Assembly: GCF_000300515.1 (NCBI RefSeq)
Contig: NZ_AMSI01000006.1
Location: 1 to 64,000, forward strand
Length of the DNA: 64,000 nt
DNA from: Nitratireductor indicus C115
GTDB lineage: Bacteria > Pseudomonadota > Alphaproteobacteria > Rhizobiales > Rhizobiaceae
Direction of reading: 5' to 3'
Part shown: in pieces, positions 49,418 through 64,000 of the stretch
How the letters are laid out: each line of letters starts with the position of its first letter
Position numbering within the stretch: position 1 is the stretch's first letter
Program-made: the position numbers and the translations under genes
Notes under the pieces: model-generated
Seen by the model: only the letters and a program-made list of their open reading frames with translations
Database searches by the model: none
What the model was told of the DNA's origin: nothing

Positions 49418-49447
49418 TCCACTCACATCGCGATAACGAATGCCGGG

Positions 49448-49562
49448 TGTCGATTGCCACGGTATTTTGCTCCAAGGCAATTTCTAAGTAATTGAAAATA
49501 AACAAGTCTGGTTCGGGCGCTTTCAGTTATTTTGCCCTTATTGCCACGGTAATTTGCCCTTG
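49448..49562. repeat. Transposon-end-like direct repeats
   Basis: ATTGCCACGGTATTTTGC (49453-49470) recurs as ATTGCCACGGTAATTTGC (49540-49557), 17 of 18 bases identical, with a third partial copy GTTATTTTGCCCTT at 49526-49539. The first copy follows TGTCG at 49448, a TGT terminus as in Tn7-like and IS21-like elements, whose ends carry several such transposase-binding repeats. It is either the left end of the Tn7-like element or the remnant of an IS21-type element. The inverted mate is not in the window. Confidence 0.6.
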
Positions 49563-49592
49563 GGTTGAATGGTGCGCCGACGTGTACCCTAG

Positions 49593-49780
49593 CATGTCCA
49601 CGACGTCGAGGCGGCGTTCGAGTCGTTGAAGGCGATGGGGGTGACCGAGTATAATCCGATTACCCGGCGCGGCGTCACCGGTTTCGTCACCGCCTCGATT
49701 ATCGACCCTTCGGCAATGGGCTGGGGATCATATCCAATCCGCACTATCCGGAAGTGCTGGCCAATAGAGAGGCTCACTGA
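49593..49780 (+). pseudogene. VOC/glyoxalase-family gene fragment
   Basis: Only the C-terminal third is present. In frame from 49593 it reads HVHDVEAAFESLKAMG and GVTGFVTASIIDP; after one lost base at about 49708 the normal end FGNGLGIISNPHYPEVL continues to a stop at 49778-49780. A stop codon lies directly before the readable part. The VOC fold needs two such modules, so it is non-functional. Its stop overlaps the ATG of the next broken gene, showing that they once formed an operon. Confidence 0.75.
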
Positions 49781-50380
49781 TGGCCCCCGTTGTCGTCGAT
49801 CCTGCCAAAGTCCGCGAGTCCCGGATGCGAACGCCTTTTACGCGTGGCTCGGCGAGAACCACACAGAGCCGATGAGATCTGGATCAAGATCCACAAGAAG
49901 GCATCGGGGCTGAAATCGATCACGCCGGTCGAGGCGATCGATGTGTGCCTGTGCTTCGGCTGGATCGACGGCATCCGCAAGGGTTTCGACGACAGAAGCT
50001 TCCTCCAGCGCTACACGCCGCGCGGGAAAAAAAGCATCTGGAGCCGGATCAATGTCGACAACGTCGCCCGGCTGATCGGGGAAGGCCGGATGACCGAACA
50101 CGGGCTGGCCGAGGCCGAGGCCGCAAAAGCCGAGGGGCGCTGGGACCGTGCCTATGCGAGCGTCAGGGAGATGACGCTGCCCGACGACCTGCTTTCAGCG
50201 ATCGAGGCGGAGCCGCGGGCGAAGGAAACGCTTGCCACGCTCAACTCGCAGAACCGCTACGCGCTTGCCTTCCGCCTGCACAACATGAAGACCGAGGCCG
50301 GACGCAGGAAGAAGATCGAGAGCTTCGTCGCCATGCTCAAGCCCGGCGAGACGATCTACCCGCAGAAGCGGAAGACCTAG
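49780..50380 (+). pseudogene. YdeI-family gene broken by two frameshifts
   Basis: With two single-base losses repaired, at about 49819 and 49869, the gene encodes about 200 residues of the YdeI/OmpD-associated family: MAPVVVDPAKVRE, then DANAFYAWLGENH, then the long intact frame ADEIWIKIHKK, CLCFGWIDGIRKGF, RYTPRGKKSIWSRIN, ending KPGETIYPQKRKT. The part after 49870 is fully open. Family members are linked to resistance to peptides or are of unknown role. The breaks may be true decay or sequencing errors; three losses in 165 bases including the VOC fragment need checking. Confidence 0.75.
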
Positions 50381-50675
50381 AGCAGTAAGTAACTCGCCGT
50401 TCCAATTTTGCTTTTAGGCAGAATTCACTCAAAAGAATCCACGATTGGAGAACGCTCGAACGAACTCCCGCCGTAGGAGAAAAGTGACGTTATGCTCGCA
50501 ATCGTGCAGCTTGAGCGACATGGCTGCTCACCGGACGCAAATAGACCCGGACTAACTGGCTAGTGAGAGCCCGGGTCTTTGTTTGCTCTAGGAAACGGGG
50601 GCCGGAAACCAGCATCCCACTCCGTGAATAAGATAACAACTTTCAGCCGGAAGTCGATTCGCCTGGACTCGGTAA
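50381..50675. other. Gene-free stretch before tniQ
   Basis: About 295 bases with no gene. It contains a stem at 50543-50578 (AGACCCGG and CCGGGTCT, followed by TTGTTTG on the plus strand), which could end the ydeI transcript. The sequence is where one transposon end would be expected if the repeats at 49448 belong to another element, but I see no clear terminal repeats. Confidence 0.45.
50543..50585 (+). terminator. Hairpin with T-rich tail
   Basis: AGACCCGG and CCGGGTCT pair around 20 bases, with TTGTTTGC following on the plus strand. On the other strand it would sit about 90 bases beyond the tniQ stop, where it could also work, though the T run is weaker. Confidence 0.5.
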
Positions 50676-52514
50676 TCATTCAAGAGTGGTTCGCGAGGTC
50701 CGCTGCAGATCCAGATCGAAAGCCTGTTCGATATCAGCACGCCGATAAATCCGACGGACGCGTCTGGGAACTTTCCTCGGACGCAGGCCCATGGCATCCA
50801 GTTTGATGGCGAGCGGCCCCGAAAGTATTCCGAGGATAGCGCTCAGTTCCCCGACCGTTATGAATTCCTTCTGAAACCGCCGCAGCTCAACCGCCCCTAC
50901 AAAGCAGCGCTGGCCCCGCATGTATGGGTGCCGTGCACTGTAAATGCGAAGTTCACCGCGTTTTTCGAGGTAGCGAATAGTTCGTGTGTCCAATCTCAAC
51001 TGTCGGGCAACATGGGCCATTGGAGGGTCGCCGGCCGACGGGGGCGCCAGACACCGCATGACTTCCTCGGGCTCCAACAACAAGGCTTCGATGCCTGTCT
51101 TCGTCGGGTCCCGACGCGCGGACGTCAGCCGGCCTTCCAGAAAGTGATGGAATATTTCGTGAACGGATGCCTGTGTTGCTTTGTAGACACTCGCCAATGG
51201 ACTCAGTTTCGGCCCAGGACGTGCGGCTTTGAGATCGCGCACGGGAGCGACGAGTGCTTCGACTTCCATTCTTGAAAGGTAGGGAACAGCAGCTTTGTCC
51301 CTCCTTTGAACCAGCAGGCCTGCACGAATGAAACGAACCACCTGCTCATAGCGGCAGCCCAGAGTGCAACTGGCCTCCACGATTGTCATCATATCGTTCG
51401 CTTTCGCTTGGAGCGCCTCCATCTGCTGCTGTGTCAGATTCGCCGGCTGGTTGGCTTCATCATCGGAAACCGCAGTCGTTGAAGCGATCAGCCGGGCGAA
51501 TTTTTCTCGCCGCACACCAAGGCTCCTTCTGCTGCGAGTTAGGCTGTAACAACGTGGATTATCGATGCGCCGACCAAGGATCCTCACGCCTGGTTCAAGC
51601 GGATAGTTCTCCACAATATGCTCTCGAACGAGATCCGCGAGTGCCTTTGCATCACGCGAGGAACGAAAATGGCAGTTCAGCCAGGCAAAGAACATGCCCA
51701 AGTCACGATTATGATAAGCAAAACGCCCGGCGAACTCGGCCTTAAGGTCCAACAGGACGCCGCGTAAATGATCGGCGCCAGCTTGCAGGATTTCGAATCC
51801 GGTGCCGCCGGCAACGTGGAGTTTGGGCTCGCTCAGGTCAGAGAACCTGAGATCAGTTCCGAACTCGACACGTGCGCCTAGCGTTTCAGAGGCTTTGCAC
51901 ACGACCGGCAATGACAACCGGTCGATCAAGGCTTCCCCCCTCCAGCCGGACAGGCGCTTTCGCAGATAGTGCTCGAGATCTGAGGGGGCACGATCGGTCG
52001 CAATGTTTGCGATATTTGTGATCTGCGGCCAATGTTTCCGGACAATCGCAGCGAAATCGTAGTTCTCTTTCGAATGCTGCTCACTCGGCAATGACAGCAG
52101 CGGGATATGGTGAAGTTCGCATGTCCTGTTCGAGACAAGCCGCCAGTCTGCGCGACAGAACGCCCCAGCAAATCCATTCTCGGCAATGCTGTCCCTTAGG
52201 CAATACGGACAAGCCCTGGGGCGCGTTCTGATAATGGAGCCACGAATCAGCGTCTCACGGCCAATTCTCATACGGCCGCCTGCCACGACTCTACAAGCAA
52301 ACCGTTGCAGCGTAGATGCATGGGCGCCCGAAAGTTCGGCCAGCCGCGCAATTTCCGAAGCGTCTCCCCTGATCAGCGCATTCCATTCTAGCCCCATGTC
52401 GAGACAGAATTCGATTGCGCCGCCCGAATTGTTTCGGATCGCGAGGCGGGAGGCGAATGATGTCGGTGTTTCCCGCTCTGCAAGATCGCAGCTTAGACCC
52501 AGTACCGGGTTCAT
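50676..52514 (-). CDS. tniQ: TniQ/TnsD-family target-selection protein
   Basis: A 612-residue protein. The N-terminal TniQ domain (about 1-170) has RETPTSFASRLA, the zinc finger CPYCLRDSI then C-x-A-D-W-R and CELHHIPLL (Cys/His ligands near residues 110-145). Two further helix-turn-helix-like parts follow: near residue 385 (EASCTLGCRYEQVVRFIRAG) and near 510-600 (MerR-like TRTIRYLEKRGELRIYS). Family members bind an attachment site or guide and recruit TnsC. Its length, beyond short TniQ forms, suggests site-specific targeting as with TnsD. It overlaps tnsC by 4 bases (ATGA). Confidence 0.85.
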   Translation of the reverse strand: MNPVLGLSCDLAERETPTSFASRLAIRNNSGGAIEFCLDMGLEWNALIRGDASEIARLAELSGAHASTLQRFACRVVAGGRMRIGRETLIRGSIIRTRPRACPYCLRDSIAENGFAGAFCRADWRLVSNRTCELHHIPLLSLPSEQHSKENYDFAAIVRKHWPQITNIANIATDRAPSDLEHYLRKRLSGWRGEALIDRLSLPVVCKASETLGARVEFGTDLRFSDLSEPKLHVAGGTGFEILQAGADHLRGVLLDLKAEFAGRFAYHNRDLGMFFAWLNCHFRSSRDAKALADLVREHIVENYPLEPGVRILGRRIDNPRCYSLTRSRRSLGVRREKFARLIASTTAVSDDEANQPANLTQQQMEALQAKANDMMTIVEASCTLGCRYEQVVRFIRAGLLVQRRDKAAVPYLSRMEVEALVAPVRDLKAARPGPKLSPLASVYKATQASVHEIFHHFLEGRLTSARRDPTKTGIEALLLEPEEVMRCLAPPSAGDPPMAHVARQLRLDTRTIRYLEKRGELRIYSARHPYMRGQRCFVGAVELRRFQKEFITVGELSAILGILSGPLAIKLDAMGLRPRKVPRRVRRIYRRADIEQAFDLDLQRTSRTTLE

Positions 52515-53461
52515 CGCACGGTCTCCACCTGGAGGAGTTCCCGCACGTTAATGCGTTCGAAGTCGTCTGCAAGGAATGGATTGAGCCCGTCAATACATCC
52601 CGAACGTCGACGAAACGCACATGTAAAATGTTGCCGGTCGAGGCGCCGGTCACCGGCAATCAGTGCTTCTTCGATTGCGCCAATAATCAGTTCAATGACG
52701 AGACCGAATTCTCCGTCAGCAGCGCGGATGAGGCGGGCGGCAAAATCATCTCCAACGGTATTTCCCGTTTCCATGCTTGTGCGGTCTGCATATGACGCGA
52801 CGATCTCGATAACCCGCTCGCCATCGAGCCCCGCACGCAGTCTAGGAAATTCAACTGGATAGAAACGCCGAGCAAGTTGAGGATCGTGATTAAGCAGATC
52901 CTTGACTTCCGGCATGCCCGACAGGATAAGCCCGACCGGCCATTCCTTGGTCTGCATCAGCGATTTCAGCGTTCTGACCACAGATTGCAGCATCTTGGGT
53001 GTCTGATAGCGCAGCAGATCTTGAGCCTCATCCAAATGAAGGAATAGTGTCTTTCTCTGCTGCAAATGGTGTCTGACCATCTCCCAGATGATCATTTCAG
53101 TTCTGTTGCGGCGAAGCGGATAACCGAGAGCTTCCAGGGCGGTCTGACCGACAAACTTCAGCGTAGCGGGCGATGGCACCTGGAAGCTGACGACGTCCCT
53201 GCGTGAATCCTTCTGGTTTTCTGATACCAATCCAGGTGTGTGAGACAGAAGTCGGGCAATGGCAGTGGTCTTGCCACTACCTGACGCTCCAACAACAGCA
53301 ATGCCCCGCGCCTCTGTAATCAAGCCGGCCGCAAGTTCAGCACGCCGTCTGTCGAGGAGCAGTCGAAACTGCTCCTCAAGCTGTAGGAATGCCGGATGAT
53401 GCGCAAAAATGCGCCGCAGAACGACCACCCGGGCGGCAACCTCTGCTTGCTTGTCAGTCAT
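52511..53461 (-). CDS. tnsC: TnsC/TniB-family AAA+ transposition ATPase
   Basis: A 316-residue ATPase. Walker A is GASGSGKT (residues 58-65), Walker B LFLHLDEAQ (138-146), followed by a sensor region in GLILSGMPEVKDLL and an arginine finger-like QLARRFYPVEF. It links target selection by TniQ to the transposase and provides target immunity in Tn7. The start ATG 53461 overlaps the end of tnsB by 8 bases, and the end overlaps tniQ by 4, so the genes are translationally coupled. Confidence 0.9.
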   Translation of the reverse strand: MTDKQAEVAARVVVLRRIFAHHPAFLQLEEQFRLLLDRRRAELAAGLITEARGIAVVGASGSGKTTAIARLLSHTPGLVSENQKDSRRDVVSFQVPSPATLKFVGQTALEALGYPLRRNRTEMIIWEMVRHHLQQRKTLFLHLDEAQDLLRYQTPKMLQSVVRTLKSLMQTKEWPVGLILSGMPEVKDLLNHDPQLARRFYPVEFPRLRAGLDGERVIEIVASYADRTSMETGNTVGDDFAARLIRAADGEFGLVIELIIGAIEEALIAGDRRLDRQHFTCAFRRRSGCIDGLNPFLADDFERINVRELLQVETVR

Positions 53462-55574
53462 CGGACAGCTTCCACGGTTTCGCGTCCCGCGGCTTGGGCG
53501 TCTGTGACTCGTCGTGAGGTGGGGAGGCTGGCTGATCGCCAATTGCATCGCCCAAAAGACCATCGACCTGAGGCAGCTCCTCGTCAGATGGATCAGCACC
53601 AGGTTTGATGCGCAGCCCCAGGAACAGTTCGCGTTCGCATCGCTCCAGGTCTGCAGCTGTGAGCGTAGGTGGCTGAACCCGCCTGAGTTCCCGGGCCCCC
53701 TGATCGATTGCTCGGATCCTGTTGCGCGCCCGCTGAACCATGTCTTCAGTCAGAACGGCATCATCCCGGTGTTTGGTCCGAAGATCACGCACGGTTTCTC
53801 GCCATTCTGAAAGGGACAAGCCCCACACGGCCTTCGATACTGCCTCGGCAGGGTGCCAGTGTGCGTGGAGGCAAACAGAAATGTGCGTCAAATCATGTGG
53901 ATCAACTCGAATTTGGATCTCGCGCGCCTGACCGGTGAGCAAAGCTCTCTGAAGTTCCGGGCTGTTGTAGCTGATGCCGTGAACAAGGACACCGTGTCGG
54001 CCAAGCTTTCTGGTCAGTGGAATGCCGAACACCACGCGCCGGGTGTTGGAGTCCGGCGGAGGTGTGGCGCCTTGTTCGGCCTTCAAGCGTTTCCAGGCAT
54101 TTGCTGGGGTTTCCCCCTTGAGGCCAGCGTGAGGTGAATTGTGATAGATGTCGACGATGAAGTTGATGAATATCTCGGCAAGTTCGTCATCAGTCAGCGC
54201 TGCCCATTGCTCTGAAGGATAGTCACCCCGCTCGCTGGGATTCGAGAAGGTGCGCCCAGTGAGCATTGGGGCCAGTTGCTGACCGAAGGTTCCGAATATC
54301 CGCTCAATTGTCGAGCGCAGTTTTGGTACGCCGGCCGGAGGCGCTTCGTAAGTAGCGCCGAGGTCGGTGACGGCAGTCCGAAATTCGACCGAGGCGAAAG
54401 CGGATCCCTGATCAGTCACGAGCGAACCAATGCCGCCCCAGAAGTCCCACGGGGATTCGCAGCCGGCCGCTTGCGCAATAGCCGTCTTGTCGAGAGCGAT
54501 GAGTTCGAGGGCTCGTACAGCACCCTCAGCGGACGGATTCGCAACGAGGCGGAAGGCCACAATGCAGCGAGTGGCACAATCGATCGCTACGTAGATCCAG
54601 CGCCGGCCTATCTCGAAGCGGGCCCTGTCGCTCGATTCAAGTGCATCGAGGGCGCCAGAGTTTCCGAAAAGAGAGGCCACATCGACCTGCCATTCGTCCA
54701 TCTCGATGCGCTCCAGCGGATAGCTGGCGGGAATACCGTTCTCGTAGAATGAGAATTTCCGTTTGGCGGCGTCGATCCCCTCTCGATGGGCCACGACGTG
54801 GAATGGATCAAATTTCCTGATGCGACGATGAATGGTCCGACCAGAAGGTATCTGGAAGGAAGGCAAACCGACTCCTATGCGACGTCTGTTTTCTTCTTTG
54901 AACCGGCTGTGTGTGTCCCTGACGATCTCCTGAACGGTGGGTTTGTTTCGGGAGAGATAACCTGCAATGCATTCCGCCAGGAGCGCATCTGCCTCGGCTG
55001 CGAACTTCCGGGTGTACGTCAAGACGCTTCGTCTCTTGCGGAGGAAAGCGAGAGGGCTAAGTCCACAGGCCTCAAACCTGCGGGTCCAGTTCCGCAATGT
55101 CCATGCGGAAGGGGGCAATCGGCGCCTGACCGTCACACCCGCCAGGTTCTTTCGGTCCAAAACCTGCCATTCTGTCTCACGAGAATCGACCAGAGCTGAT
55201 AACCTGGGCATGGCACTGCGAATGGAATCAATTGTGCGACAGACTGTGCCCCTTGTTTCGGCGTCAAGAAATGCGTTGCAGTAAGCAGCCTTCCACAACA
55301 GGTCTTCACGCGTATCCGCGGGAAGCGTGTTGAGATATTGATGGTCGCATCGCAGTCGAAGCGCCGCCCGCCCGCAAGAAAAATGGTCTCGTTTGAACCG
55401 GATGTCTGGCGATGCGAGCAACCCGACAAGTTGTTCGTGAGTGAACGACAGGCGCACTGCACTATCGTCGATTCGCCATAGAACGACGCCTTTGTCGTCC
55501 TGGCTTTGAAGAAGATGATCGGCACCATTGATCGTGATGCAGTCTGTTTCGGACAACCGGAACCGGGAAGTCAT
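53454..55574 (-). CDS. tnsB: TnsB/TniA-family DDE transposase
   Basis: A 706-residue DDE transposase. The Mu-type rve core lies at about 285-440: Asp 293 in IEMDEWQV, Asp 388 in VTDQGSAFA, Glu 424 in RSTIERIFG. N-terminal helix-turn-helix segments near 150-255 (WTLRNWTRRFEACGLSPL) bind end repeats; a beta-barrel Mu C-terminal domain follows (about 480-560, FGIPLTRKLGRHGVLVHGI). An acidic/proline tail (about 670-706) may contact TnsC. It joins 3' ends to target. It overlaps tnsA by 4 bases. Confidence 0.93.
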   Translation of the reverse strand: MTSRFRLSETDCITINGADHLLQSQDDKGVVLWRIDDSAVRLSFTHEQLVGLLASPDIRFKRDHFSCGRAALRLRCDHQYLNTLPADTREDLLWKAAYCNAFLDAETRGTVCRTIDSIRSAMPRLSALVDSRETEWQVLDRKNLAGVTVRRRLPPSAWTLRNWTRRFEACGLSPLAFLRKRRSVLTYTRKFAAEADALLAECIAGYLSRNKPTVQEIVRDTHSRFKEENRRRIGVGLPSFQIPSGRTIHRRIRKFDPFHVVAHREGIDAAKRKFSFYENGIPASYPLERIEMDEWQVDVASLFGNSGALDALESSDRARFEIGRRWIYVAIDCATRCIVAFRLVANPSAEGAVRALELIALDKTAIAQAAGCESPWDFWGGIGSLVTDQGSAFASVEFRTAVTDLGATYEAPPAGVPKLRSTIERIFGTFGQQLAPMLTGRTFSNPSERGDYPSEQWAALTDDELAEIFINFIVDIYHNSPHAGLKGETPANAWKRLKAEQGATPPPDSNTRRVVFGIPLTRKLGRHGVLVHGISYNSPELQRALLTGQAREIQIRVDPHDLTHISVCLHAHWHPAEAVSKAVWGLSLSEWRETVRDLRTKHRDDAVLTEDMVQRARNRIRAIDQGARELRRVQPPTLTAADLERCERELFLGLRIKPGADPSDEELPQVDGLLGDAIGDQPASPPHDESQTPKPRDAKPWKLSDD

Positions 55575-56260
55575 TGTGCGACCTCCCTGACTACACGGGT
55601 GGTTGGTTCGATATCTCCATGATCCAGTGCCCGCGCATATCCGGCGTAGATTGCCCGAAACACCGCGCGAAAGCCTCTTCCCTTCAGGCCGCTCAACGAT
55701 ACGATCTCTGCGATAGTCGTCTCACCCGAAAGGGTGTTGATGATTGACTGAACCCCGGAATCAGCTTCCGGATCGGGGCTGCGCCGGAACTCGTGAAGCC
55801 GGGCCGCATTGCGGGCCGCGGAGGACGTGAACGATCGGTCGGTCACCAGGTCAACACGATGTGCGAATGCAAGGCTGGTCGCCGCACGGATCAATACAAA
55901 CTCGCTGCGAAACCTGGGCCTTGCAGCAAGCGCTGCGGGCTTCACGGCAATCGCTATCCGCTGCCCGCTTGTCAGAGTGATCAGATAGTCAAATACGTGC
56001 TGCCTTTGGCGTCCGCCAGTCGATTCATATGAAATCGCCGGCGGCTGATCCCAGATATCGTGGATGTCAGGCCGCGCCAGCAGCAGGTGCAAAACCCGCT
56101 GCTCCAGTTTGCTCTCGAATACGATCCGCCGTGGATGCCTGTCCGCGGGCAACCGGGCGACAAGTACTCCCCTGAGGCTTGCTCGTGACCGGGGAGATAT
56201 ATGCCGGATCGACCGGCTTGAAAGCGGAGGTCTGAAATTCTCGTTGTGGTGATGTGTCAT
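55571..56260 (-). CDS. tnsA: TnsA-family endonuclease
   Basis: A 229-residue restriction-like nuclease. Residues about 45-110 match TnsA: VFESKLEQRVLHLLL with Glu 49/53, HVFDYLITL with Asp 91 and IAIAVKP with Lys 107, the E-D-K catalytic set. The C-terminal part (about 160-229) has a helix-turn-helix-like segment (IAEIVSLSGLKGRGFRAVFR). With TnsB it makes cut-and-paste transposition possible by cutting the 5' strands. The annotation rests on these motifs and its position; overall similarity to known TnsA is moderate. No clear ribosome site precedes ATG 56260. Confidence 0.8.
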   Translation of the reverse strand: MTHHHNENFRPPLSSRSIRHISPRSRASLRGVLVARLPADRHPRRIVFESKLEQRVLHLLLARPDIHDIWDQPPAISYESTGGRQRQHVFDYLITLTSGQRIAIAVKPAALAARPRFRSEFVLIRAATSLAFAHRVDLVTDRSFTSSAARNAARLHEFRRSPDPEADSGVQSIINTLSGETTIAEIVSLSGLKGRGFRAVFRAIYAGYARALDHGDIEPTTRVVREVAQ

Positions 56261-56470
56261 TGTCTGTCAGCCAAGGACATGCGGGCACCAACGGCCTGCC
56301 GCCCAGGCAGCTCCTTTCCGGGGTTTGCAACGGCCTCCCCGCTCGCCGTGCTGGCAGGCAGGCTTGACTCTTTGTTCTGTTCGCGGGAGAAAGGAGCATC
56401 GGTGGAAATCGATATTCCTTACGGCCTTGAGGGGTGCAACTCTCAGGGCCGTTTCCCGTTTGGATGCCGG

Positions 56471-56707
56471 TTACCGTTTCATCTGCCCCTCCCGTTTTGC
56501 ATATTTGCCAGGCCAGAGATGACATGGCTCGACGCCGAGCTTGTCGGCGATCGCCTGTTGAACTCTTTGGGAACTTCGGTGCCCCTGGCAGACCATGGTC
56601 ACTGAAACGCACGAGACGCCGAGCTCTTCGGCGATTTTGGCAAAAGTGATTTTCCTTCTGCGCAACTGGCGTTTGATCCAGTCGTGACGCTCGATGTCGA
56701 CGTGCAT
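56471..56707 (-). CDS. Ner/Nlp-like helix-turn-helix regulator
   Basis: A 78-residue DNA-binding protein of the Ner type: HDWIKRQLRRRKITFAKIAE begins the helix-turn-helix, and the LGVEPCHLWPGKY end is characteristic of the family (phage Mu Ner, Nlp/SfsB). Ner proteins repress transposition operons. It lies 210 bases upstream of tnsA on the same strand. GAGAG is just before ATG 56707. A control role for the transposition operon is inferred from position. Confidence 0.85.
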   Translation of the reverse strand: MHVDIERHDWIKRQLRRRKITFAKIAEELGVSCVSVTMVCQGHRSSQRVQQAIADKLGVEPCHLWPGKYAKREGQMKR

Positions 56708-57103
56708 CTCTCGGCACCTTCAGATGAAGCAGGCGAATCAGCTAATACTTCGCTACCTGCTTAGAATCTCCGGGGCAACAGAGCATCGAGAGTGACGTTG
56801 GGGATAATTCTAATCTATTTCCGTTACCTTATTGGCAACGTAGTAGAGGTGGATCCTCTTTTGGGAGAAAATGCGAAACAATTTCTAATGCGCAGTTCTG
56901 GCGCTTGTTTTTGTCTTAAGTCGCAAGAAATTTAATTTTGGGCAGTTTACCGAAATTGATACATTTGACCGCGGCACGCGCATGCTTTCTAGGGTATGGA
57001 AATCTGCACTGAATCCAGTTTTCCACAGATTTTCCATGAAATGAAGTCACTGCGCTCGCCGCGTCTGTAGGCAAGAAAACAAGTGTTCGTCATCCATCGC
57101 AAA
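56708..57103. other. AT-rich gene-free stretch between Ner-like gene and cargo
   Basis: About 400 bases, clearly more AT-rich than neighbours (for example around 56900-56960). It should hold the promoter for the Ner-like gene and the tns operon. A 9-base match, AGTGACGTT, and a 10-base match, CAATTTCTAA, to sequences left of tniQ (near 50487 and 49479) are too short to call transposon ends. No gene is seen. Confidence 0.4.
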
Positions 57104-57874
57104 TCAGTTTCCGATCTCGACAACATGAGCTTCATCGAAGGCAGGGTTGCTGAACATCGACCCAGCTGGGTTGCAAAGGATACGCGTCCCGTTTGGTCTG
57201 ATCATGTCAACGCTGGCGTGAATATGCCCGTGCACCCACAAAGCGATCCGGCCGCTGTCGGTCAAATGCGACAGGTCGGAAGCTGAATTGCCGGCACTCC
57301 ACGTGTTGCGATGCGCAAAAGGCAAGCATTCGGGGTGCGGTGCGTGGTGGGTGATCACGACAACTGGCAGGTCGCCATCTGCTTCCGCAATCGACTTTTC
57401 CAGATTCGCTCTCGCGTCGGCGTGCAGCATAATCGCGTCGCCCACAGTGATCGGGCGCCTGCCGCCATCATGCTTGATGTCGATCTGCTCACCAGTTTCA
57501 GCGCGTGGATCGACTGCTTCAGGGGATAATGCATAGTCGGTCCACAGCGTCGTGCCGATGAAACGGCAGCCAGCAATCGAAATAGTCTCGCCTTCGAGCA
57601 GTGTTACGCCATGCTCGATGGCGAGCGTCCTGGCCATTGCCAAACCGTCGCTCAGCGCACCGTTCCAGTGTTCGTGATTGCCCAACACAAAAACCACAGG
57701 CTTGCCGCCAGAAAGCTGCGCCAGAAACTGGAATGCACGCCGGCAATCCCCCTGCCATACGTCGCCGGCGACAACCATCACGTCGAAATCTGGCCGCTGC
57801 GGCTGAAAGGCATTTGGATAGGGGATGGTTTCAAGATGAAGGTCGGACAAGACCCAAAGCCTAGGCACGTTCAT
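57104..57874 (-). CDS. Calcineurin-like metallophosphoesterase
   Basis: A 256-residue metallophosphoesterase. All metal motifs are present: VLSDLHLE (residues 8-15), VVAGDVWQGD, VLGNHEHWNG, VITHHAPHP and VHGHIHASVD. The substrate may be a phosphodiester, nucleotide or protein. AAGGAGGGGGG directly before ATG 57874 is a very strong ribosome site. It sits between the transposition genes and the SIR2 gene, so it is probably cargo. Related enzymes occur singly in defence islands, but a link to the neighbours is unproved. Confidence 0.88.
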   Translation of the reverse strand: MNVPRLWVLSDLHLETIPYPNAFQPQRPDFDVMVVAGDVWQGDCRRAFQFLAQLSGGKPVVFVLGNHEHWNGALSDGLAMARTLAIEHGVTLLEGETISIAGCRFIGTTLWTDYALSPEAVDPRAETGEQIDIKHDGGRRPITVGDAIMLHADARANLEKSIAEADGDLPVVVITHHAPHPECLPFAHRNTWSAGNSASDLSHLTDSGRIALWVHGHIHASVDMIRPNGTRILCNPAGSMFSNPAFDEAHVVEIGN

Positions 57875-58027
57875 CCCCCCTCCTTGAAGAAAGGCGGCCG
57901 ATTTTAGGGTAATGCTCGAGGCGTTTGTGCTGGAATTCGCGAGGCATTCTGAAATCGTATGACATGCAACGGGATACTTGAAGCGCTCTTTGCTTAGCTA
58001 AGGGATAGGAACGCAGTCGCTTTGCTT

Positions 58028-61000
58028 TCAGCGCGAGTCCGATTGGATGGAGATCACGTTCATTGCCATCGGCCCGCGGAATGTGAAGGCGATGTTGAAA
58101 TTGACTTCATCATAGAGCTGTATCGCCTCCCAATGGTCACGGGAGCTGTTGTACTCATGCGCGAAAATATCTCGTCCGTGCTGGTGGCTTGCTATGAACA
58201 CGTACCCAACTTCCTGCTTGACGACTTGGCCCTTGAAGACCGTTGGAGCCCCACCCGGATCGGTCAAGCAGGCATTCGGCGTCCTTTTTGCCGAAGGGGA
58301 AATCGGAGCGTCCTGCAAGCTGTCAAATATGCTGTCGCTGCCAGCATAGTCGCCTGCAAGGAACAATTCTCGGCCATACCAAAGCTGAGCGTCATAGTTG
58401 TTATCCCCGTTCGAGAAGCCCGAACGGAAGTGCTGTATTGCGGAACGGCGCTCGGCAACATCGGACGATCGCGCCTGCAGCACGCCTAACTGAAAATGCG
58501 CCGTTTTCGCCGTTGGGTGCTCAGTGATGACCTTCTGCAGAATGGTCTTCGCGGAGGCAACATCGTCTCCTTCGAGATAGAGGTTTGCCAACCTGACAGC
58601 GATCCACTCTTGCCGCGGATTCGCCCTAAAGGCTTTTTCCAAGGCGATCTTTGCGTTAGGGTTGTCGCTTATGGCAGTCCGGTAGTTCGCCTCGGTGGTC
58701 AAGATGTACTCATCGTTCGGGAAGAGCCGCTGGCCAGTCGACAGTTCACTTTCAACTTCCTTCATGCGCTCCAGAAGGACGCGGTCCCGCCCGCTTGCTC
58801 CCTGCTCTTCCCGCAGCATGTCCTTCAGTTCGTCTATCAGAACGAGCAGCCTAGTGTTTACCTCGTAGGCATGTCGGCGGGAACCGGACCTAAGTCGGCT
58901 GAGTGAACGGCGGCGATACTCAGCCCGGAGAAGCGGGTTGGATTCATCCAGGGCCTTCTTCCGATAGAGAACCGCTATCGAGTGCTGAATGCTTGCATCG
59001 TGCCCTGCGATCTCCTCGGCCTTCCCTAGCAATTTCTCGGCGCGCGGCAGGTTGCCTCCGCCGTGGTTGATCTCGAAGATCGCTTCCTGCTGAAGTATAT
59101 AGGGATCGTCCTGTCCCACCGCTTGCTGAGCGACTCTGTAGAGTGATCGGCCCATTTCCACTGACGGGAACGTGTCCGCCACGACGCGTCCGCGCGTCAT
59201 TTGGTCAAACGCCTCTTTGTCCACGGAGAAGCTAATGTTCAGACCGCCTAGAATGCGCAGGATCTGGTTCAGCTTGTCTTCGTGGTTTGACAGCGTCTCC
59301 GAAAATACAATCTCTGCGACATGCGGGTGCCTAGCGCGGTACACGCGATCGCCGATGTATCGGTCATATTCACTGTAGACGATCTTTTCCAGCGGCTGGA
59401 ATAGCTCTTTCTCAAACTCCTCAAAGTGGATGCCGGACACCCGGGCGATTAAGCCGGCACGTACCGGAACACCAAACCGGTTGAGGGTGCAAATGTCGAG
59501 ATAGAGAAGTTTCGCCGCTTCGGGCGTTATGCGAGCATATTCGTCGACCACGATCTCTTCGAACGGTCGGCCGAGGGTGGCTTCGTGAAGTGCTACAAGA
59601 ATCTGTCGTTGGGCCCGGTCCTTGAAGGCCCTCACCCGATCATCGGGCTTCATCTCCGCGAGCAGGCCGAGAGCTCGGTGCGTCCCCAGCTTCTCGAGGA
59701 GCTCGCCAATTTCAAGATCGGTGAGGTAGCGGACGGGGTAGGAATTCACAACGAACTCTTCAAGAGCCTCGCAACGCGTGTTCCATTCGTTATCGCGCTC
59801 CGCAGTTATGACGCTCAGCTGCACCTTCCTTGTCTGCATCTGCCTAAGGAAAAGTGATAGTTCCGAGGCACGAAGCGATGGACGATCGACAATCAGGAAG
59901 ATGCGGCGATTCGTCAGTTCATGGATTTCCTGAAATCGGTCGGCACGGAGGGCACCCATGTCGGAAAGATAGAAGACCAATGCGTCATAGTCGGTCGCTG
60001 CGTCCCACGCCGTTCGCTTGAGAGCCGTGGTCTTGCCGTTGCCGGCCGCACCCTTAAGCACGAAGAGCTCGACGGGTTTTCTACTGGCCGTCTCTTCCTC
60101 CAGAACGGCGTCTACGAGAACAGTGTCCGAGACCTTGCGGCGGACGTCCAGCTTTGCCAAAACGCCTGCAAATCCACGGTCATAGCCCTTGTAGTAGTCG
60201 ACCGGTTCAACCTGCTCAATAGGCATACCGGCCCTAACGTGCAGGATGTCAGTAGCAAGATACTGGACTGTCGCCTCACCGTAGGTGCGATCGGCTAGCA
60301 CACGGAAACGATCGATCGATGGTGCGCCGGATTGTCTGAAGCTGGAAAGTCTGCGGCTGTTGGCGGGAATCTGCCGGTCCAGCTCCCGAAGAAAAGTCTC
60401 GAAGGTCGCCTTGATCGGGGTGATCCGGTTAGATTGCCAAAGACGTGCTTCGATATCTTCGAACTTTGGCGACACCACATAGTATTGCGGTCGCCTTTCG
60501 TTCGCGTTGAACAGGTCGAAGAGCACGGTCCGTATGTTCGGGTCGTCGATGGAGTAGCCGCAGAAGATTAGGGGAAATTCGTGCGCCATGCCCCGAAGCA
60601 TGTCGAACAGGCGAGATCGATGCTGCGCAAAGGTGACGTACTGGTCCGAGGTTATGATTAACGGCGCTTCGGCGTCGTTCGAGTGATTCAAGCAACCGTG
60701 CAGCTTTAGGAACTTCAGCGGATTTTCGACCTTCTTCGCCTCCCGTTCCACAAGCTGGTCGTTCTTGATGAAAGGCACCAGCGTCTGCAGTGGCTTTTCC
60801 GTGGACTGGTATGCTCGGTCAATGATGAGATCGTAGTTGGTGGTCGCGACAGCGTGCCAATGAAACTCCGGAATCAGCAGGTGAAAATCGGCGGGTGAAA
60901 AATCGAGCAGGAGTTCCTTGAGATAGGCCTGCAATTGCAGTAGGCCCGCCTCCGAGACACAGAACTGCGCTACAGCCGCAAGCGACCGATCTTTGAGCCT

Positions 61001-61201
61001 GCCCCCCAGAAATTTGTCTGAAAGTAGGATCTTGAGATCGTCTCCCTTGGGAGCGGATCTTTGCGGATTTGGATGTTTAGCTCCTATGGAGGCGCCTGAC
61101 CCGAGGAAAAGGATGGCATTGCCTTCGCGCACAGCATCTACGAGTGCGGCCGGTAGTTCTAGCGGCGTCTGAACCAAGATCCCCCCTTTGGTCTGCGCCA
61201 T
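58028..61201 (-). CDS. SIR2-STAND-TPR protein with cold-shock-like C-terminus (probable defence)
   Basis: A 1057-residue multidomain protein. SIR2-like NADase domain (about 20-275): LFLGSGAS at 31-38, VATTNYDLII at 118-127, and LKLHG with the catalytic His 168. P-loop ATPase domain (about 375-640): GAAGNGKTT (384-392) and Walker B IFLIVD (434-439). TPR-like helices fill about 690-985. The last 70 residues resemble a cold-shock OB-fold, with VGYVFI and DIFAH at RNP1/RNP2 positions. SIR2-STAND proteins of the Avs5 kind deplete NAD on phage sensing. ATG 61201 is chosen; TTG 61240 is in frame upstream. Confidence 0.85.
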   Translation of the reverse strand: MAQTKGGILVQTPLELPAALVDAVREGNAILFLGSGASIGAKHPNPQRSAPKGDDLKILLSDKFLGGRLKDRSLAAVAQFCVSEAGLLQLQAYLKELLLDFSPADFHLLIPEFHWHAVATTNYDLIIDRAYQSTEKPLQTLVPFIKNDQLVEREAKKVENPLKFLKLHGCLNHSNDAEAPLIITSDQYVTFAQHRSRLFDMLRGMAHEFPLIFCGYSIDDPNIRTVLFDLFNANERRPQYYVVSPKFEDIEARLWQSNRITPIKATFETFLRELDRQIPANSRRLSSFRQSGAPSIDRFRVLADRTYGEATVQYLATDILHVRAGMPIEQVEPVDYYKGYDRGFAGVLAKLDVRRKVSDTVLVDAVLEEETASRKPVELFVLKGAAGNGKTTALKRTAWDAATDYDALVFYLSDMGALRADRFQEIHELTNRRIFLIVDRPSLRASELSLFLRQMQTRKVQLSVITAERDNEWNTRCEALEEFVVNSYPVRYLTDLEIGELLEKLGTHRALGLLAEMKPDDRVRAFKDRAQRQILVALHEATLGRPFEEIVVDEYARITPEAAKLLYLDICTLNRFGVPVRAGLIARVSGIHFEEFEKELFQPLEKIVYSEYDRYIGDRVYRARHPHVAEIVFSETLSNHEDKLNQILRILGGLNISFSVDKEAFDQMTRGRVVADTFPSVEMGRSLYRVAQQAVGQDDPYILQQEAIFEINHGGGNLPRAEKLLGKAEEIAGHDASIQHSIAVLYRKKALDESNPLLRAEYRRRSLSRLRSGSRRHAYEVNTRLLVLIDELKDMLREEQGASGRDRVLLERMKEVESELSTGQRLFPNDEYILTTEANYRTAISDNPNAKIALEKAFRANPRQEWIAVRLANLYLEGDDVASAKTILQKVITEHPTAKTAHFQLGVLQARSSDVAERRSAIQHFRSGFSNGDNNYDAQLWYGRELFLAGDYAGSDSIFDSLQDAPISPSAKRTPNACLTDPGGAPTVFKGQVVKQEVGYVFIASHQHGRDIFAHEYNSSRDHWEAIQLYDEVNFNIAFTFRGPMAMNVISIQSDSR

Positions 61202-61365
61202 CGTAATCGGAACACCTTGTGCGCGACCTGTAGTATCCAACCTGCAGATTATGCCAGCATCGTTGTGCAGCCCTCAAACACACAACCACTTTTTCACAAA
61301 ATTCAACTACCGAATACTCTGCTACGTACAGGCAGGTCACGCTGATTCAGGACATGGCTGTGAAT

Positions 61366-62415
61366 TTATGCCCGGCCAGAATAGTCGCTGAACAAATCCT
61401 GCTGCCCATCATCGGCTGTCGAATAGGCGCCGAGAATCGCATCCAAGGCATTCTTATTAAGCGCTTCGGACAGGATTTCTCCGTTGAATTCGAGCACTCT
61501 GAGCACCCGAATATTCTTTGGAGCGTTTGCCTTCCCTTGGTAGGCCCACTGCACCCTGATCGTATCGATGATATGGATACTCAAACGCTCGGCCTTTACA
61601 AGCTGCCAGAAATGCTCGTCCTCTATCCGGAAGAACCGCTCCCGACCTTTCACATCCTTCCCTTTCCAGAACCGGTGCCGATCCTCCCGATCCCAGTTTG
61701 GCGACGTGACTTTCAGATCGACAATTCCCGTTGTCCACGGTTCATCATCCTCGTCCTCCGCTGGCGGAAGCGCGACCTGGAGGCGGGCAAAATCGGAACG
61801 GTCTATCGGAAAAACCGGCTCGTCCTCGAAACCCACAGCGCGAAGATCGCGGGTGTCTGCGCAAGCCTGATAAAACTCGTTTCGGGCTTCATAGACGTCC
61901 CGGAAGCGGATCGTGGTGATCCCGGCCTGTTCGAGATCAGATGTACCCCGCTGAAGGATTGATTTCGTTGCCTCCACGACAATCCGGGCGCTGGTCTGGC
62001 ACTTGATCTCGTCGCTGGGCTGCTTTTCCGATTCCTCTTTATCATCCGGCGCTGAAAAACCGTCCCGGATCGACGCTCCGATGACTTCCGCCCAATGCGC
62101 AGGTGTCTGCTCCGTCAGACCCTTTATGAAGCCTTGTCCGACATCACTCTCGGTAAACGTCCAGACGGCAAGCCAGCCGCCAAAGATGTAGATGCCGATT
62201 TTGCTCTTGAAGGAACCGGCCTGCGGCGGGAGCACCAGGATTTCATATTTCAGCTTCCCGTCGAATACCTCCCTGTTGAGGGAAGCCACGATCGCAGCTG
62301 TCTGCTGTGCCGTGCGAACAAAGGTTGCCAAGGGTATTTCATGGCCGGGCAGATCAAAGTGGATCGGCAGGACCGCAACCGCGCCACCCGTCTCCTGTTC
62401 CGATCTTTCTGCCAT
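61366..62415 (-). CDS. Unknown protein, third gene of unrecognised operon
   Basis: A 349-residue protein that I do not recognise. The N-terminal part (about 15-125) has an HFDLPGHEIPLATFVRTAQQ start, a strand-rich stretch ending SFKSKIGIYIFGGWLAVW, which could be membrane-associated or a buried hairpin, then an acidic linker (about 120-140). The C-terminal half is charged and aromatic, with ERFFRIEDEHFWQLVKAERL and RVLRVLEFNGEILSEALNK. It ends DLFSDYSGRA. It starts 21 bases after the previous gene. No nuclease or ATPase motif is visible. Confidence 0.72.
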   Translation of the reverse strand: MAERSEQETGGAVAVLPIHFDLPGHEIPLATFVRTAQQTAAIVASLNREVFDGKLKYEILVLPPQAGSFKSKIGIYIFGGWLAVWTFTESDVGQGFIKGLTEQTPAHWAEVIGASIRDGFSAPDDKEESEKQPSDEIKCQTSARIVVEATKSILQRGTSDLEQAGITTIRFRDVYEARNEFYQACADTRDLRAVGFEDEPVFPIDRSDFARLQVALPPAEDEDDEPWTTGIVDLKVTSPNWDREDRHRFWKGKDVKGRERFFRIEDEHFWQLVKAERLSIHIIDTIRVQWAYQGKANAPKNIRVLRVLEFNGEILSEALNKNALDAILGAYSTADDGQQDLFSDYSGRA

Positions 62416-62436
62416 TCTGCCCCCTTACAGCCCCGT

Positions 62437-63186
62437 TCAGGCGGCTTTTACCTGCCCCGCAGTCATGAGTTTCCGCCACTTCTCAAATTCATCGGGCAGA
62501 ATTCCAATGAATGCACTGTCAGCCATGCATTCCGGATCATAGGTCAGGTCCAGCTGGCGGAGGACGAGCCCAAAGCGTCGGGCACTGCCTCGACCGTTGC
62601 CCGCAACGCCGGTGCGCGGGCGCGACTTCCCGTTATCAAAATACAGCTTGTTTGCCGCCTTGATGATGGGCCTGCTCCCAAGGACCTGCTGCCGGCCGCC
62701 AAACTGTTCGAGTATTTCCCCATGCACACTGAGGGGGTGCGCCGACTTACGCGGCGCAATCAGAAGAAAGCGCGACGCTTCACCGTGGTCTTTTACAAGC
62801 TGCCAGGGGGAGCGTACCAGGTGACGGTAATAGTGGCGGTAATCAGAGCTGAGTGCGTACAGATACTCCTGCTTCGGTGACCGGTTTCCACCGGCATCCG
62901 GCGGGCAAAGCCTGTCGAACCAATGCAGGGCGAGAGCACTCCACAGCCCTTTATCGCCGCTGATGGCGGCGGCGTCGAATTGCTTAAGCAGCGTATTCAG
63001 ATAGACGCCGAACATGTACCGGTCATCGAACTGTCCGGTTCCGGGTTCAATATGGAAGTCAAGCGGCGCAGACGTTTCCGGACTCTCAAGAAGGTGATAC
63101 GGTGGCGGTCCTTCTGCCCCGTCTCTGATGTAATCGGTGAACGCAGCGATCCCGGCTTCGTTAAGCTTTCTGAATTTCCCCGCCAT
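62437..63186 (-). CDS. Unknown protein, second gene of unrecognised operon (possibly DUF6339-like)
   Basis: A 249-residue protein. The opening KFRKLNEAGIAAFTDYIRDG recalls the DUF6339 family, a guess that needs a profile search. The middle (about 60-180) has LYALSSDYRHYYRHLVRSPW, rich in Tyr, Arg and His, and the C-terminal part has RRFGLVLRQLDLTYDPECM. No membrane helix or catalytic triad is evident. Its ATG overlaps the previous stop (TAATG), implying coupled translation and probably a fixed complex. Confidence 0.72.
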   Translation of the reverse strand: MAGKFRKLNEAGIAAFTDYIRDGAEGPPPYHLLESPETSAPLDFHIEPGTGQFDDRYMFGVYLNTLLKQFDAAAISGDKGLWSALALHWFDRLCPPDAGGNRSPKQEYLYALSSDYRHYYRHLVRSPWQLVKDHGEASRFLLIAPRKSAHPLSVHGEILEQFGGRQQVLGSRPIIKAANKLYFDNGKSRPRTGVAGNGRGSARRFGLVLRQLDLTYDPECMADSAFIGILPDEFEKWRKLMTAGQVKAA

Positions 63187-63962
63187 TAATGTTCCTCCGC
63201 AGCAGTTCTGATCCTGTCCACCAGTGACAGGTTTTCACAAAACCGCATTGCAACGTCATCAATCCAGTTTTCTTTCGAAATCTCATCGGGAAGTTCGCGC
63301 GGATCGTCTGCCGCTCCGAGTTCGTTCCGGCAGTACTCGAGCCATTCTTCCTTCCATCCAGGTTCGTCGTCCTCCTCACCCGTGTCGGACACTCTGACAA
63401 GGTCCTTGAGGACGAAACGCAAAGCTGCCGGAAGTAAAAGTCCCTGCATCATAGGACTTTCCAAAAGCTTGTGTGAAAACCCCGGAATTCGCTTGTTCAC
63501 AACAAGGACGGGGCGGTCTCCCTGCTCGATCTCAACCTTCCAGACATCGTGGCGAAGATCGCTGTAGAGTATCGGAAAGATACTGCGACGACCGTCGCTG
63601 TCGTCTTCACTTTTGGGTTTCAGACGTTCTGCCGACCCAAGCAGTTTTCCCGGCTCTGCATCATTATCGACCACCTTCAGCCGGAACAGAACGGAACCGC
63701 TCTTGTCCACTTCGCTTAGGACCAGTACATCCGGAACATTCAGCGCGTTTACAGTTCCGCAATCGAACCGCATTCCGGACGAGCGATGATACGCTTCAAC
63801 AGCAACCGTCGCGTCTCCGGGGAAATTCTGATTGTCGAGTTTCAGTGAAACTTTCGCTTTCAACGGCTCGTCGGGTGCAGTTTCAAGCATACTGATCTCG
63901 ATACATTCGCGCCCTATGCGCTTGCGGCCCGTTGAGTTAATGCGTCTCTTCGCCGTGCTCAT
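63186..63962 (-). CDS. Unknown protein, first complete gene of unrecognised operon
   Basis: A 258-residue acidic protein. The first 130 residues look like beta-sandwich strands (VSLKLDNQNFPGDATVAVEAY, by position near 37; SGSVLFRLKVVDNDAE), followed by IFPILYSDLRHDVWKVEIEQ and a mainly helical C-terminal part (LLLPAALRFVLKDLV; EEWLEYCRNELG). I recognise no family. ATG 63962 overlaps the stop of a further gene (TAATG), and its own stop overlaps the next ATG in the same way. Confidence 0.72.
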   Translation of the reverse strand: MSTAKRRINSTGRKRIGRECIEISMLETAPDEPLKAKVSLKLDNQNFPGDATVAVEAYHRSSGMRFDCGTVNALNVPDVLVLSEVDKSGSVLFRLKVVDNDAEPGKLLGSAERLKPKSEDDSDGRRSIFPILYSDLRHDVWKVEIEQGDRPVLVVNKRIPGFSHKLLESPMMQGLLLPAALRFVLKDLVRVSDTGEEDDEPGWKEEWLEYCRNELGAADDPRELPDEISKENWIDDVAMRFCENLSLVDRIRTAAEEH

Positions 63963-64000
63963 TACAAGGCCCTCGCATCCACGATCAGATCACGCACGAC
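63962..64000 (-). CDS. C-terminal end of a further operon gene (partial)
   Basis: The last 12 codons, reading VVRDLIVDARAL, end in TAA that shares its final A with the ATG of the following gene. The rest lies beyond the window. It is likely the larger, possibly catalytic, member of the operon. Confidence 0.65.
   Translation of the reverse strand, partial: VVRDLIVDARAL

What the first reader, a model, noticed from the sequence alone, without database searches (positions are those of the whole stretch)
61366..64000. Unrecognised coupled operon of at least four genes in Tn7-like cargo
Three complete genes (258, 249 and 349 residues) and the end of a fourth are read on the minus strand with TAATG overlaps at 63962 and 63186 and a 21-base gap at 62416-62436. 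Such tight coupling usually means subunits of one complex. None shows a motif I recognise, and they sit beside a SIR2-STAND gene behind a Tn7-like module, where anti-phage systems are common. The missing upstream gene may be the enzyme. This is the best candidate for an undescribed system.
Basis: partly seen in the sequence, partly recalled or inferred. Interest (0 to 1): 0.8.

Follow-up and report, generated by a model that had tools for sequence, protein, structure and literature searches.

The report
ATPase defence module beside DNA methylase
A jumping element carries an operon in which a DNA-marking enzyme is followed by a tiny protein, a GHKL ATPase and two unnamed proteins that travel together through many bacterial phyla, probably as a way of blocking unmarked foreign DNA.

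Summary
Read past 64000, the operon is Phd-like, C5 cytosine methylase, Vsr, a 75-aa protein (P75), a GHKL ATPase (606 aa, A), B (258 aa), C (249 aa), then the 349-aa protein. It is cargo of a 19,292-bp Tn7-like element (49448-68739) with inverted ends, 5-bp target duplication and an empty site in 4 of 4 relatives fetched. A-B-C is a real module: collinear in 75 of 76 testable loci from many phyla including archaea; seeded with C, 5 of 5 hits lie beside B and A sequence (A a fragment in one). Window B and C match no Pfam, NCBIfam or PADLOC model. C has a confident predicted fold unmatched in the PDB. A has GHKL motifs plus the ExxxH published for paraMORC2. The Gram-positive sister (P75-A-B'-DUF6339) corresponds to PADLOC candidate PDC-M33. 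The 349-aa protein is not core (1 of 85 loci). Best reading: A-B-C is the ATP-driven restriction arm of a 5mC-marked system. Defence is inferred, not shown, and some related loci also carry classical nucleases. Unexpected: P75 stands before a GHKL or GHKL-like ATPase gene in 9 of 9 genomes that carry it.

The parts
63962..64000 (-). 3' end of A, the GHKL (paraMORC2-like) ATPase gene, 606 aa; continues to contig position 65782, followed upstream by P75 (65785-66012), Vsr (66111-66539), C5 methylase (66536-68092) and a Phd-like regulator (68085-68267)
63186..63962 (-). B (258 aa): N-terminal Fn3/Ig-like beta sandwich plus C-terminal helical domain; core subunit
   Evidence: 84 of 85 loci; AlphaFold mean pLDDT 90.9; Foldseek fn3 matches, best E 4.8e-3, none under 0.001
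62437..63186 (-). C (249 aa): mostly helical protein, no fold match; core subunit; distant resemblance to DUF6339
   Evidence: 82 of 85 loci; mean pLDDT 95.6; best PDB E 3.5, best BFVD E 1.5; hhalign to a DUF6339 set E 0.0015, probability 17%
61366..62415 (-). 349-aa accessory protein, distant relative of LAPAL NF053583 and of proteins that match PDC-S42; not part of the conserved core
   Evidence: NCBIfam E 6e-9 below cut-off; 1 of 85 loci; relatives beside other defence genes
58028..61240 (-). neighbouring SIR2-nSTAND-TPR-cold-shock-domain protein (1070 aa), separate cargo gene
   Evidence: Pfam SIR2_2, nSTAND_NTPase5, TPR_19 over cut-off, CSD just below it; phmmer found no homologue in the other 85 loci scanned
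49448..64000 (.). window part of the Tn7-like element 49448-68739 (19,292 bp) that carries the operon; ends TGTCGATTGCCACGGTATTTTGC, target duplication CCGGG
53454..55574 (-). TnsB transposase
   Evidence: phmmer to Tn6677 TnsB E 2.7e-28
52511..53599 (-). TnsC ATPase
   Evidence: phmmer to VchTnsC E 1.1e-6
55571..56260 (-). TnsA-like endonuclease
   Evidence: phmmer to TnsA-TnsB fusion E 0.0038, weak
50676..52514 (-). TniQ-like protein
   Evidence: by position and reading only; not profiled

Best explanation
A, B and C form one ATP-driven complex that serves as the restriction arm of a 5-methylcytosine self-marking system. The C5 methylase marks host DNA and Vsr repairs the T:G mismatches that 5mC causes. 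The GHKL ATPase A, a MutL/MORC-type clamp, loads on DNA that lacks the mark. B (beta sandwich plus helices) is the adaptor. C (new helical fold) is the effector that blocks or destroys the foreign DNA. P75 acts on A itself, as loader, cofactor or safety catch. SHOWN by computation: the genes, their order, the ATPase motifs, the module's conservation, the methylase/Vsr link, the mobile element. INFERRED: physical complex, DNA as target, recognition of missing 5mC, effector role of C, anti-phage outcome.
For: A-B-C collinear in 75 of 76 testable loci; 5 of 5 when seeded with C, one of these with only a fragment of A. GHKL motif residues named in the membership table kept in 82-85 of 85 rows. C5 methylase within 7 kb in 46 of 85 loci, 23 of 35 with full flanks; Vsr in 35 of 85 and 19 of 35. 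Methylase-type split (with 84, 85): 0 of 30 loci with a window-type methylase (at least 95 bits to it) have an EcoRII or MvaI/BcnI nuclease, against 10 of 16 other methylase loci, so in window-type systems A-B-C is the obvious candidate for the restriction arm. In 5 loci without Vsr (L006, L036, L037, L052, L074) an HhH-GPD glycosylase-like gene directly follows the methylase (Pfam confirmed for L052 only), consistent with a 5mC mark. Mobile: Tn7-like cargo with empty site in 4 of 4 relatives fetched. Precedent: VcSduA (paraMORC3) stops phage and needs its ATPase (passages of PMC12137116).
Against: All three Gram-positive sister loci that I opened with annotated DUF6339 also carry a classical restriction nuclease gene (MutH/Sau3AI, AlwI, type II), so A-B-C need not replace one, and these are families that my two nuclease profiles would miss in window-type loci. 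12 of 35 loci with full flanks have no C5 methylase within 7 kb, and a 17-row clade has none in sight (12 of the 17 have short flanks), so A-B-C can work without a linked methylase. Near relatives of the same A lineage (L020, L023) carry the other methylase type plus an EcoRII nuclease. No nuclease fold was found for B or C. No phage assay exists. The module is rare: 5 of 398 genomes.
Confidence: 0.45

Rival explanations
1. A-B-C is a DNA repair or mutation-avoidance machine, analogous to MutL working with Vsr, that deals with damage at 5mC sites or, in unlinked copies, with other lesions.
For: Vsr in 35 of 85 loci, a glycosylase-like gene directly behind a C5 methylase in 6; unlinked copies form a clade that largely sorts by phylum, many among genes that look like housekeeping; Iyer 2008 suggested repair for versions in non-R-M contexts (PMC2292703).
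Against: Low frequency (5 of 398 genomes), phylum-mixed clades for methylase-linked copies, carriage on a transposon: defence behaviour rather than housekeeping repair.
Confidence: 0.2
2. A-B-C is an abortive-infection alarm that kills or stalls the cell when self-marking is lost or DNA is being attacked; C is a toxin and P75 or the methylase keeps it off.
For: C is a compact helical protein of unknown fold with invariant Gly12 and Arg204 and near-invariant Trp82, His122, Tyr182, Gln211 and Glu233. The cargo also holds a SIR2-STAND gene, a class often abortive (recalled). Some paraMORCs carry HEPN toxin domains (passage of PMC3710099).
Against: No HEPN, nuclease or other toxin fold was found for C; unlinked copies exist without a methylase.
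Confidence: 0.18
3. Ordinary type II restriction-modification: A-B-C merely helps or regulates a classical nuclease, linked in some loci and unlinked or unrecognised in the window's genome.
For: 10 of 46 methylase-linked loci contain an EcoRII or MvaI/BcnI nuclease; 3 of 3 opened Gram-positive loci with annotated DUF6339 have a nuclease of another family.
Against: An EcoRII or MvaI/BcnI nuclease was found in 0 of 30 window-type loci; no gene of the window operon matched a restriction nuclease; A-B-C also stands with no C5 methylase near.
Confidence: 0.17

Closest known systems
paraMORC2 GHKL ATPases in R-M operons (Iyer, Abhiman and Aravind 2008, PMC2292703)
   Same: GHKL ATP-binding motifs, conserved ExxxH in the C-terminal part, neighbourhood with C5 methylase and Vsr
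   Different: Described as mainly in cyanobacteria and Gram-positives; the text that I read (parts 1-3 of 4, figures not held) does not describe B, C or P75
PADLOC candidate PDC-M33 (GHKL, B', DUF6339)
   Same: Gene order P75, GHKL, second protein, third protein, near dcm, with Vsr in two of these three; A matches the PDC-M33A model; a haloarchaeal DUF6339 protein matches PDC-M33C
   Different: 0 of 79 B and 0 of 72 C proteins match any PDC-M33 model; profile comparison of C with DUF6339 only suggestive, of B with B' not significant
DISARM
   Same: Window methylase's best PADLOC match is the DISARM methylase DrmMII (4.9e-86)
   Different: No PADLOC match to DrmA, DrmB or DrmC among the operon's proteins
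VcSduA / paraMORC3 Shedu (PMC12137116, passages)
   Same: GHKL ATPase used for anti-phage defence
   Different: Single protein with a fused PD-(D/E)xK nuclease; none seen here
PDC-S42 / LAPAL NF053583
   Same: Three relatives of the 349-aa protein (L017, L110, L111) match PDC-S42; the protein itself matches NF053583 below cut-off
   Different: The window copy and the Paracoccus copy have no PADLOC match; no relative found in phage records or viral contigs

Membership tests
GHKL ATPase superfamily | N-box E..N..D, G1 D..G..G, G2 G..G.GK | tested here: met
   E39 N43 D46 84/84; D104 84/85; G109 and G112 85/85; G140 G143 G145 85/85; K146 82/85
paraMORC2 | ExxxH motif in C-terminal part of the S5 domain | tested here: met
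   E419 and H423 in 85 of 85 rows; definition from PMC2292703. S5 fold itself not modelled
paraMORC2 | Mainly cyanobacteria and Gram-positives (descriptive) | tested here: inconclusive
   This branch: Pseudomonadota, Planctomycetota, Nitrospirota, archaea and others; the Gram-positive sister exists
PDC-M33 (PADLOC) | A matches PDC-M33A | tested here: met
   6.2e-32, best stretch residues 33-289
PDC-M33 (PADLOC) | B and C match the further PDC-M33 models | tested here: not met
   0 of 79 and 0 of 72 at E 0.1
Type II restriction-modification | Cognate methylase | tested here: met
   PF00145 5.8e-43; activity and target site not tested
Type II restriction-modification | Cognate restriction endonuclease | tested here: not met
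   None recognised in the operon by Pfam, PADLOC or NCBIfam; an unlinked one elsewhere in the genome was not looked for
DISARM | DrmA, DrmB, DrmC | tested here: not met
   No PADLOC match among the operon's proteins
Tn7-like transposon | TnsA/B/C homologues, TGT...ACA ends, 5-bp target duplication | tested here: met
   TnsB, TnsC significant, TnsA weak; ends and CCGGG duplication
PDC-S42 | Match to PADLOC model by the 349-aa protein | tested here: not met
   Window copy 0 matches; three relatives match
Anti-phage system | Protects cells against phage | not testable with these tools
   needs a bench assay

The most novel reading that the evidence does not exclude
P75 plus a GHKL ATPase is a general ATP-driven immune core on which unrelated effectors are swapped: B and C here, B' and DUF6339 in Gram-positives, other partners with other GHKL families. 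Here the effector pair stops unmarked DNA without a nuclease, by MORC-like clamping or compaction of the DNA, with C as a new-fold effector.
Probability: 0.27. Interest if true: 0.86.

Novelty: new variant of a known kind. Interest (0 to 1): 0.62.

Why it matters
GHKL/MORC ATPases in restriction operons were predicted in 2008 (PMC2292703), but what the multi-gene versions do is, as far as my searches show, open; that paper derives eukaryotic MORCs, some of which silence transposons, from them. This report defines a compact set (P75, A, B, C, with or without a methylase) that can be cloned and tested, with two conserved proteins that match no Pfam or PADLOC family (one with an apparently new fold) and a 75-aa protein that seems to be a dedicated partner of several GHKL ATPase families.

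Tried and rejected
The 349-aa protein as core subunit: rejected (1 of 85 loci). The 349-aa protein as membrane protein: not supported for the window copy (best 19-residue hydropathy 0.97; five relatives 1.34-2.21). As phage structural protein, as its NCBIfam relative is named: no relative in phage records or viral contigs. C as HEPN RNase (an R-x4-H stretch at residues 117-122): rejected because there is no fold match and Arg117 is not among the columns conserved in at least 80%. DISARM: no DrmA/B/C. Vsr as obligatory nuclease: found in only 19 of 35 full-flank loci. SIR2-STAND as part of the module: no homologue in the other loci scanned. PF19866 (DUF6339) in 31 relatives found nothing, and its 14 control genomes did not ring either, so that search says nothing. 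PDB sequence searches with B, C and A gave nothing meaningful. PDB searches with the other P75-linked ATPase-like families gave no GHKL hit, only a probably spurious RNA-binding-protein match at E 1.9e-4. Counts of linkage come from the 80 best of 306 relatives of A plus five loci found earlier, so they lean to near kin. No random-locus control was run for methylase linkage.
Full report
OBSERVATION. The three ORFs, both TAATG junctions and the 21-base gap are as described. The window is the start of contig G000:C6 (306,498 bases), so I read on. In contig coordinates, minus strand, 5' to 3': a Phd/YefM-like gene 68267-68085 (PF02604), overlapping by 8 bases the C5 methylase 68092-66536 (PF00145 5.8e-43); Vsr 66539-66111 (TIGR00632 1.3e-42), overlapping the methylase by four bases; P75 66012-65785, with an AGGAG upstream; A 65782-63962 (606 aa); B; C; the 349-aa gene. 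P75 had no Pfam or PADLOC match; NCBIfam was not tried for it.

MOBILE ELEMENT. Ten same-genus genomes gave a match to the DNA right of the operon; I fetched four of them. In four of four (L125-L128), window position about 49420 is followed directly by about 68790. The inserted DNA begins and ends with TGTCGATTGCCACGGTATTTTGC in inverted orientation, flanked by CCGGG on both sides: 49448-68739, 19,292 bp. It encodes TnsB (E 2.7e-28 to Tn6677 TnsB), TnsC (1.1e-6), a weakly matched TnsA (0.0038) and a TniQ-like protein by reading only.

WHAT A IS. A has the GHKL ATP-binding motifs. Its only PADLOC match is PDC-M33A (6.2e-32); it has none in Pfam and no significant one in NCBIfam (best E 0.057). 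Glu419 and His423 are invariant in 85 of 85 rows; Iyer et al. 2008 give an ExxxH in this part of the protein as the mark of paraMORC2 (PMC2292703, parts 1-3 of 4 read). That paper places such ATPases with C5 methylases and Vsr.

THE MODULE. One scan of genome contigs with a five-sequence profile of A gave 306 relatives among 400 pattern matches; the best 80 loci were kept. With five loci found earlier this makes 85 with A. B is in 84 of 85, C in 82 of 85; A-B-C is collinear in 75 of the 76 loci with at least 1.8 kb downstream. The exception is the haloarchaeal L006, where the two following genes are a 356-aa protein and DUF6339. Nine loci were too short to test. The B-C junction overlaps by 1 or 4 bases in 45 of 71 loci and lies within 30 bases in 70 of 71, with C's start taken as the first start codon from 30 bases before B's end. 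Search seeded with C instead: 5 of 398 Pseudomonadota genomes, all five with B and A sequence beside C; in G538 A is only a fragment. B and C of the window have no Pfam, NCBIfam or PADLOC match at E 1, and 0 of 79 B and 0 of 72 C family members match PDC-M33 at E 0.1.

STRUCTURES. B: mean pLDDT 90.9, beta strands then helices; Foldseek finds fn3-like domains, best E 4.8e-3, none under 0.001. C: mean pLDDT 95.6, mostly helical; best PDB E 3.5 and best BFVD E 1.5, that is, no match. A, P75 and the 349-aa protein were not modelled (two jobs only).

METHYLATION LINK. C5 methylase within 7 kb in 46 of 85 loci and 23 of 35 with full 7-kb flanks; Vsr in 35 and 19. Neighbours include EcoRII-type nucleases in 7 loci and MvaI/BcnI-type in 3, by profiles that I made from the clusters; Pfam was run on three of these ten and agreed (L020, L024, L028). 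An HhH-GPD glycosylase-like gene was hit in seven loci; in six it directly follows a C5 methylase (L006, L035, L036, L037, L052, L074), five of them without Vsr; in L031 it lies away and looks like MutY by reading; Pfam was run on the L052 gene only. All ten loci with such a nuclease have a methylase scoring at most 56 bits to the window's; the 30 loci with a methylase at 95 bits or more, the window included, have none; of the 16 others 10 have one. Some methylases counted are cut by contig ends. This suggests that A-B-C takes the nuclease's place in window-type systems. Against it: near relatives of the same A lineage (L020, L023) carry the other type with EcoRII; only two nuclease families were sought; and the three Gram-positive sister loci that I opened with annotated DUF6339 all have a nuclease of another family (MutH/Sau3AI, AlwI, type II).

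COPIES WITHOUT METHYLASE. 12 of 35 full-flank loci have no C5 methylase within 7 kb. I looked at the neighbours of 14 loci without one, some with short flanks: many look like housekeeping genes by reading, but L081 has a SNF2-type helicase-like and an Eco57I-type methylase gene nearby, and L072, not among the 14, has a C5 methylase just beyond 7 kb. On a quick tree of A, a 17-row clade (support 95) has no methylase in sight, although 12 of its 17 members have short flanks, and largely sorts by phylum; methylase-linked clades mix phyla; the least number of changes of state is 7. The tree is a fast one with warnings about long rows.

P75. The profile hit 24 of the 85 loci, 23 within 7 kb of A; 22 of the 24 hits lie on A's strand directly before A (up to 172 bases, or overlapping by over-called starts). 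In L046 the methylase lies between; in L060 the hit is some 7 kb downstream on the other strand, in a longer ORF. Among full-flank loci it occurs in 11 of 23 with a methylase and 0 of 12 without (Fisher p 0.0055). Seeded with P75, 9 of 398 genomes hit. In all nine the next large gene on that strand is a GHKL or GHKL-like ATPase, with Vsr between in G364: five match my profile of A, two are family X (G558, G655) and two are family Y (G582, G066). Family X is supported as GHKL by profile comparison with HtpG (E 1.1e-5, probability 82%); family Y only by motifs in register, not significant. PDB searches with X and Y did not bring up GHKL proteins. Of 13 plasmid records with P75 I opened nine: Priestia, Planococcus and Arthrobacter have P75, GHKL, B', DUF6339 near dcm (two of the three with Vsr); Deinococcus has P75 and GHKL beside methylase and Vsr; Dinoroseobacter, Agrobacterium and Rhizobium RCAM2802 have P75 and family X; Ensifer has an 800-aa protein of unproven kind; Rhizobium SU303 has a short P75 next to an IS element and no ATPase.

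RELATION TO PDC-M33. The Gram-positive order P75-A-B'-DUF6339 equals P75-A-B-C. Profile comparison of C with four DUF6339 proteins gives E 0.0015 over 165 columns but probability 17%; B with B' E 0.18. I therefore call them sister systems with corresponding parts, not one family.

THE 349-aa PROTEIN. Relatives are rare (3 of 289 genomes of the class and 4 of 398 of the phylum, own included, one of the latter a fragment): one between a type III methylase and a large protein with a weak type III restriction-enzyme match, beside SIR2-HerA; one beside an AriA/OLD-like ATPase; one on a 12-kb Paracoccus plasmid that also has Vsr and a methylase; one (G237) among genes that look like housekeeping. 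It looks like a mobile defence accessory.

VIRUSES. A has no relative in 50,697 phage records. One IMG/VR contig of 64 kb (L112) carries P75, a methylase, a relative of A and Vsr.

LITERATURE. Searches for DUF6339, PDC-M33 and PDC-S42 found no paper; GHKL ATPase with Vsr, methyltransferase and anti-phage none; GHKL, anti-phage, methyltransferase and operon since 2020 one jumbo-phage paper (listing only); very short patch repair with GHKL and phage only papers of 2008 and 2013. Most subscription papers and bioRxiv are not in the library. PMC12137116 was seen in passages, PMC3710099 in one passage, PMC8011034 in passages. That a MORC can entrap and condense DNA is from an abstract in a listing (PMC8277788).

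VERDICT. A real, widespread but rare, little-described module of a known kind, most likely defence. The mechanism is inferred.

Noticed in passing
contig C6:65785-66012 (beyond the window); L148, L149, L150, L151, L141, L142, L144: P75, a 75-aa protein with no Pfam or PADLOC match, lies directly before GHKL or GHKL-like ATPase genes of several families (9 of 9 genomes, one with Vsr between).
   Followed up: partly
window 58028-61240: SIR2-nSTAND-TPR protein ends in a cold-shock-like domain (1 bit below Pfam's cut-off); an unusual domain combination.
   Followed up: no
window 57104-57874: Metallophosphoesterase-like gene (by reading) in the same transposon, next to the SIR2-STAND gene.
   Followed up: no
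contig C6:68085-68267: Phd/YefM-like gene with no toxin gene seen beside it, overlapping the methylase start by 8 bases; among the loci scanned found only here and in the nearest relative L018. Possibly the operon's repressor.
   Followed up: partly
window 49443-49447 and contig 68740-68744: Tn7-like element sits just upstream of a DUF692/BufB-like gene (by reading); 5-bp duplication CCGGG.
   Followed up: yes
L110:1242-15773: Relative of the 349-aa protein inside a type III methylase operon beside a SIR2-HerA pair.
   Followed up: partly
L108:6974-9003: In genome G538 the A gene is reduced to a 112-aa end piece next to a partial Vsr: apparently a decayed copy.
   Followed up: no
L145:11939-13084: Arthrobacter plasmid has a Shedu nuclease gene annotated directly after P75-A-B'-DUF6339.
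   Followed up: no
L112:6608-11831: An IMG/VR viral contig carries P75, a C5 methylase, a relative of A and Vsr; whether it is truly viral was not checked.
   Followed up: no
L141:11583-14727 and L142:10150-13291: Behind P75 and a family-X ATPase, two plasmids have an annotated ATP-binding protein and a UvrD-helicase pair, reminiscent of Gabija (recalled).
   Followed up: no
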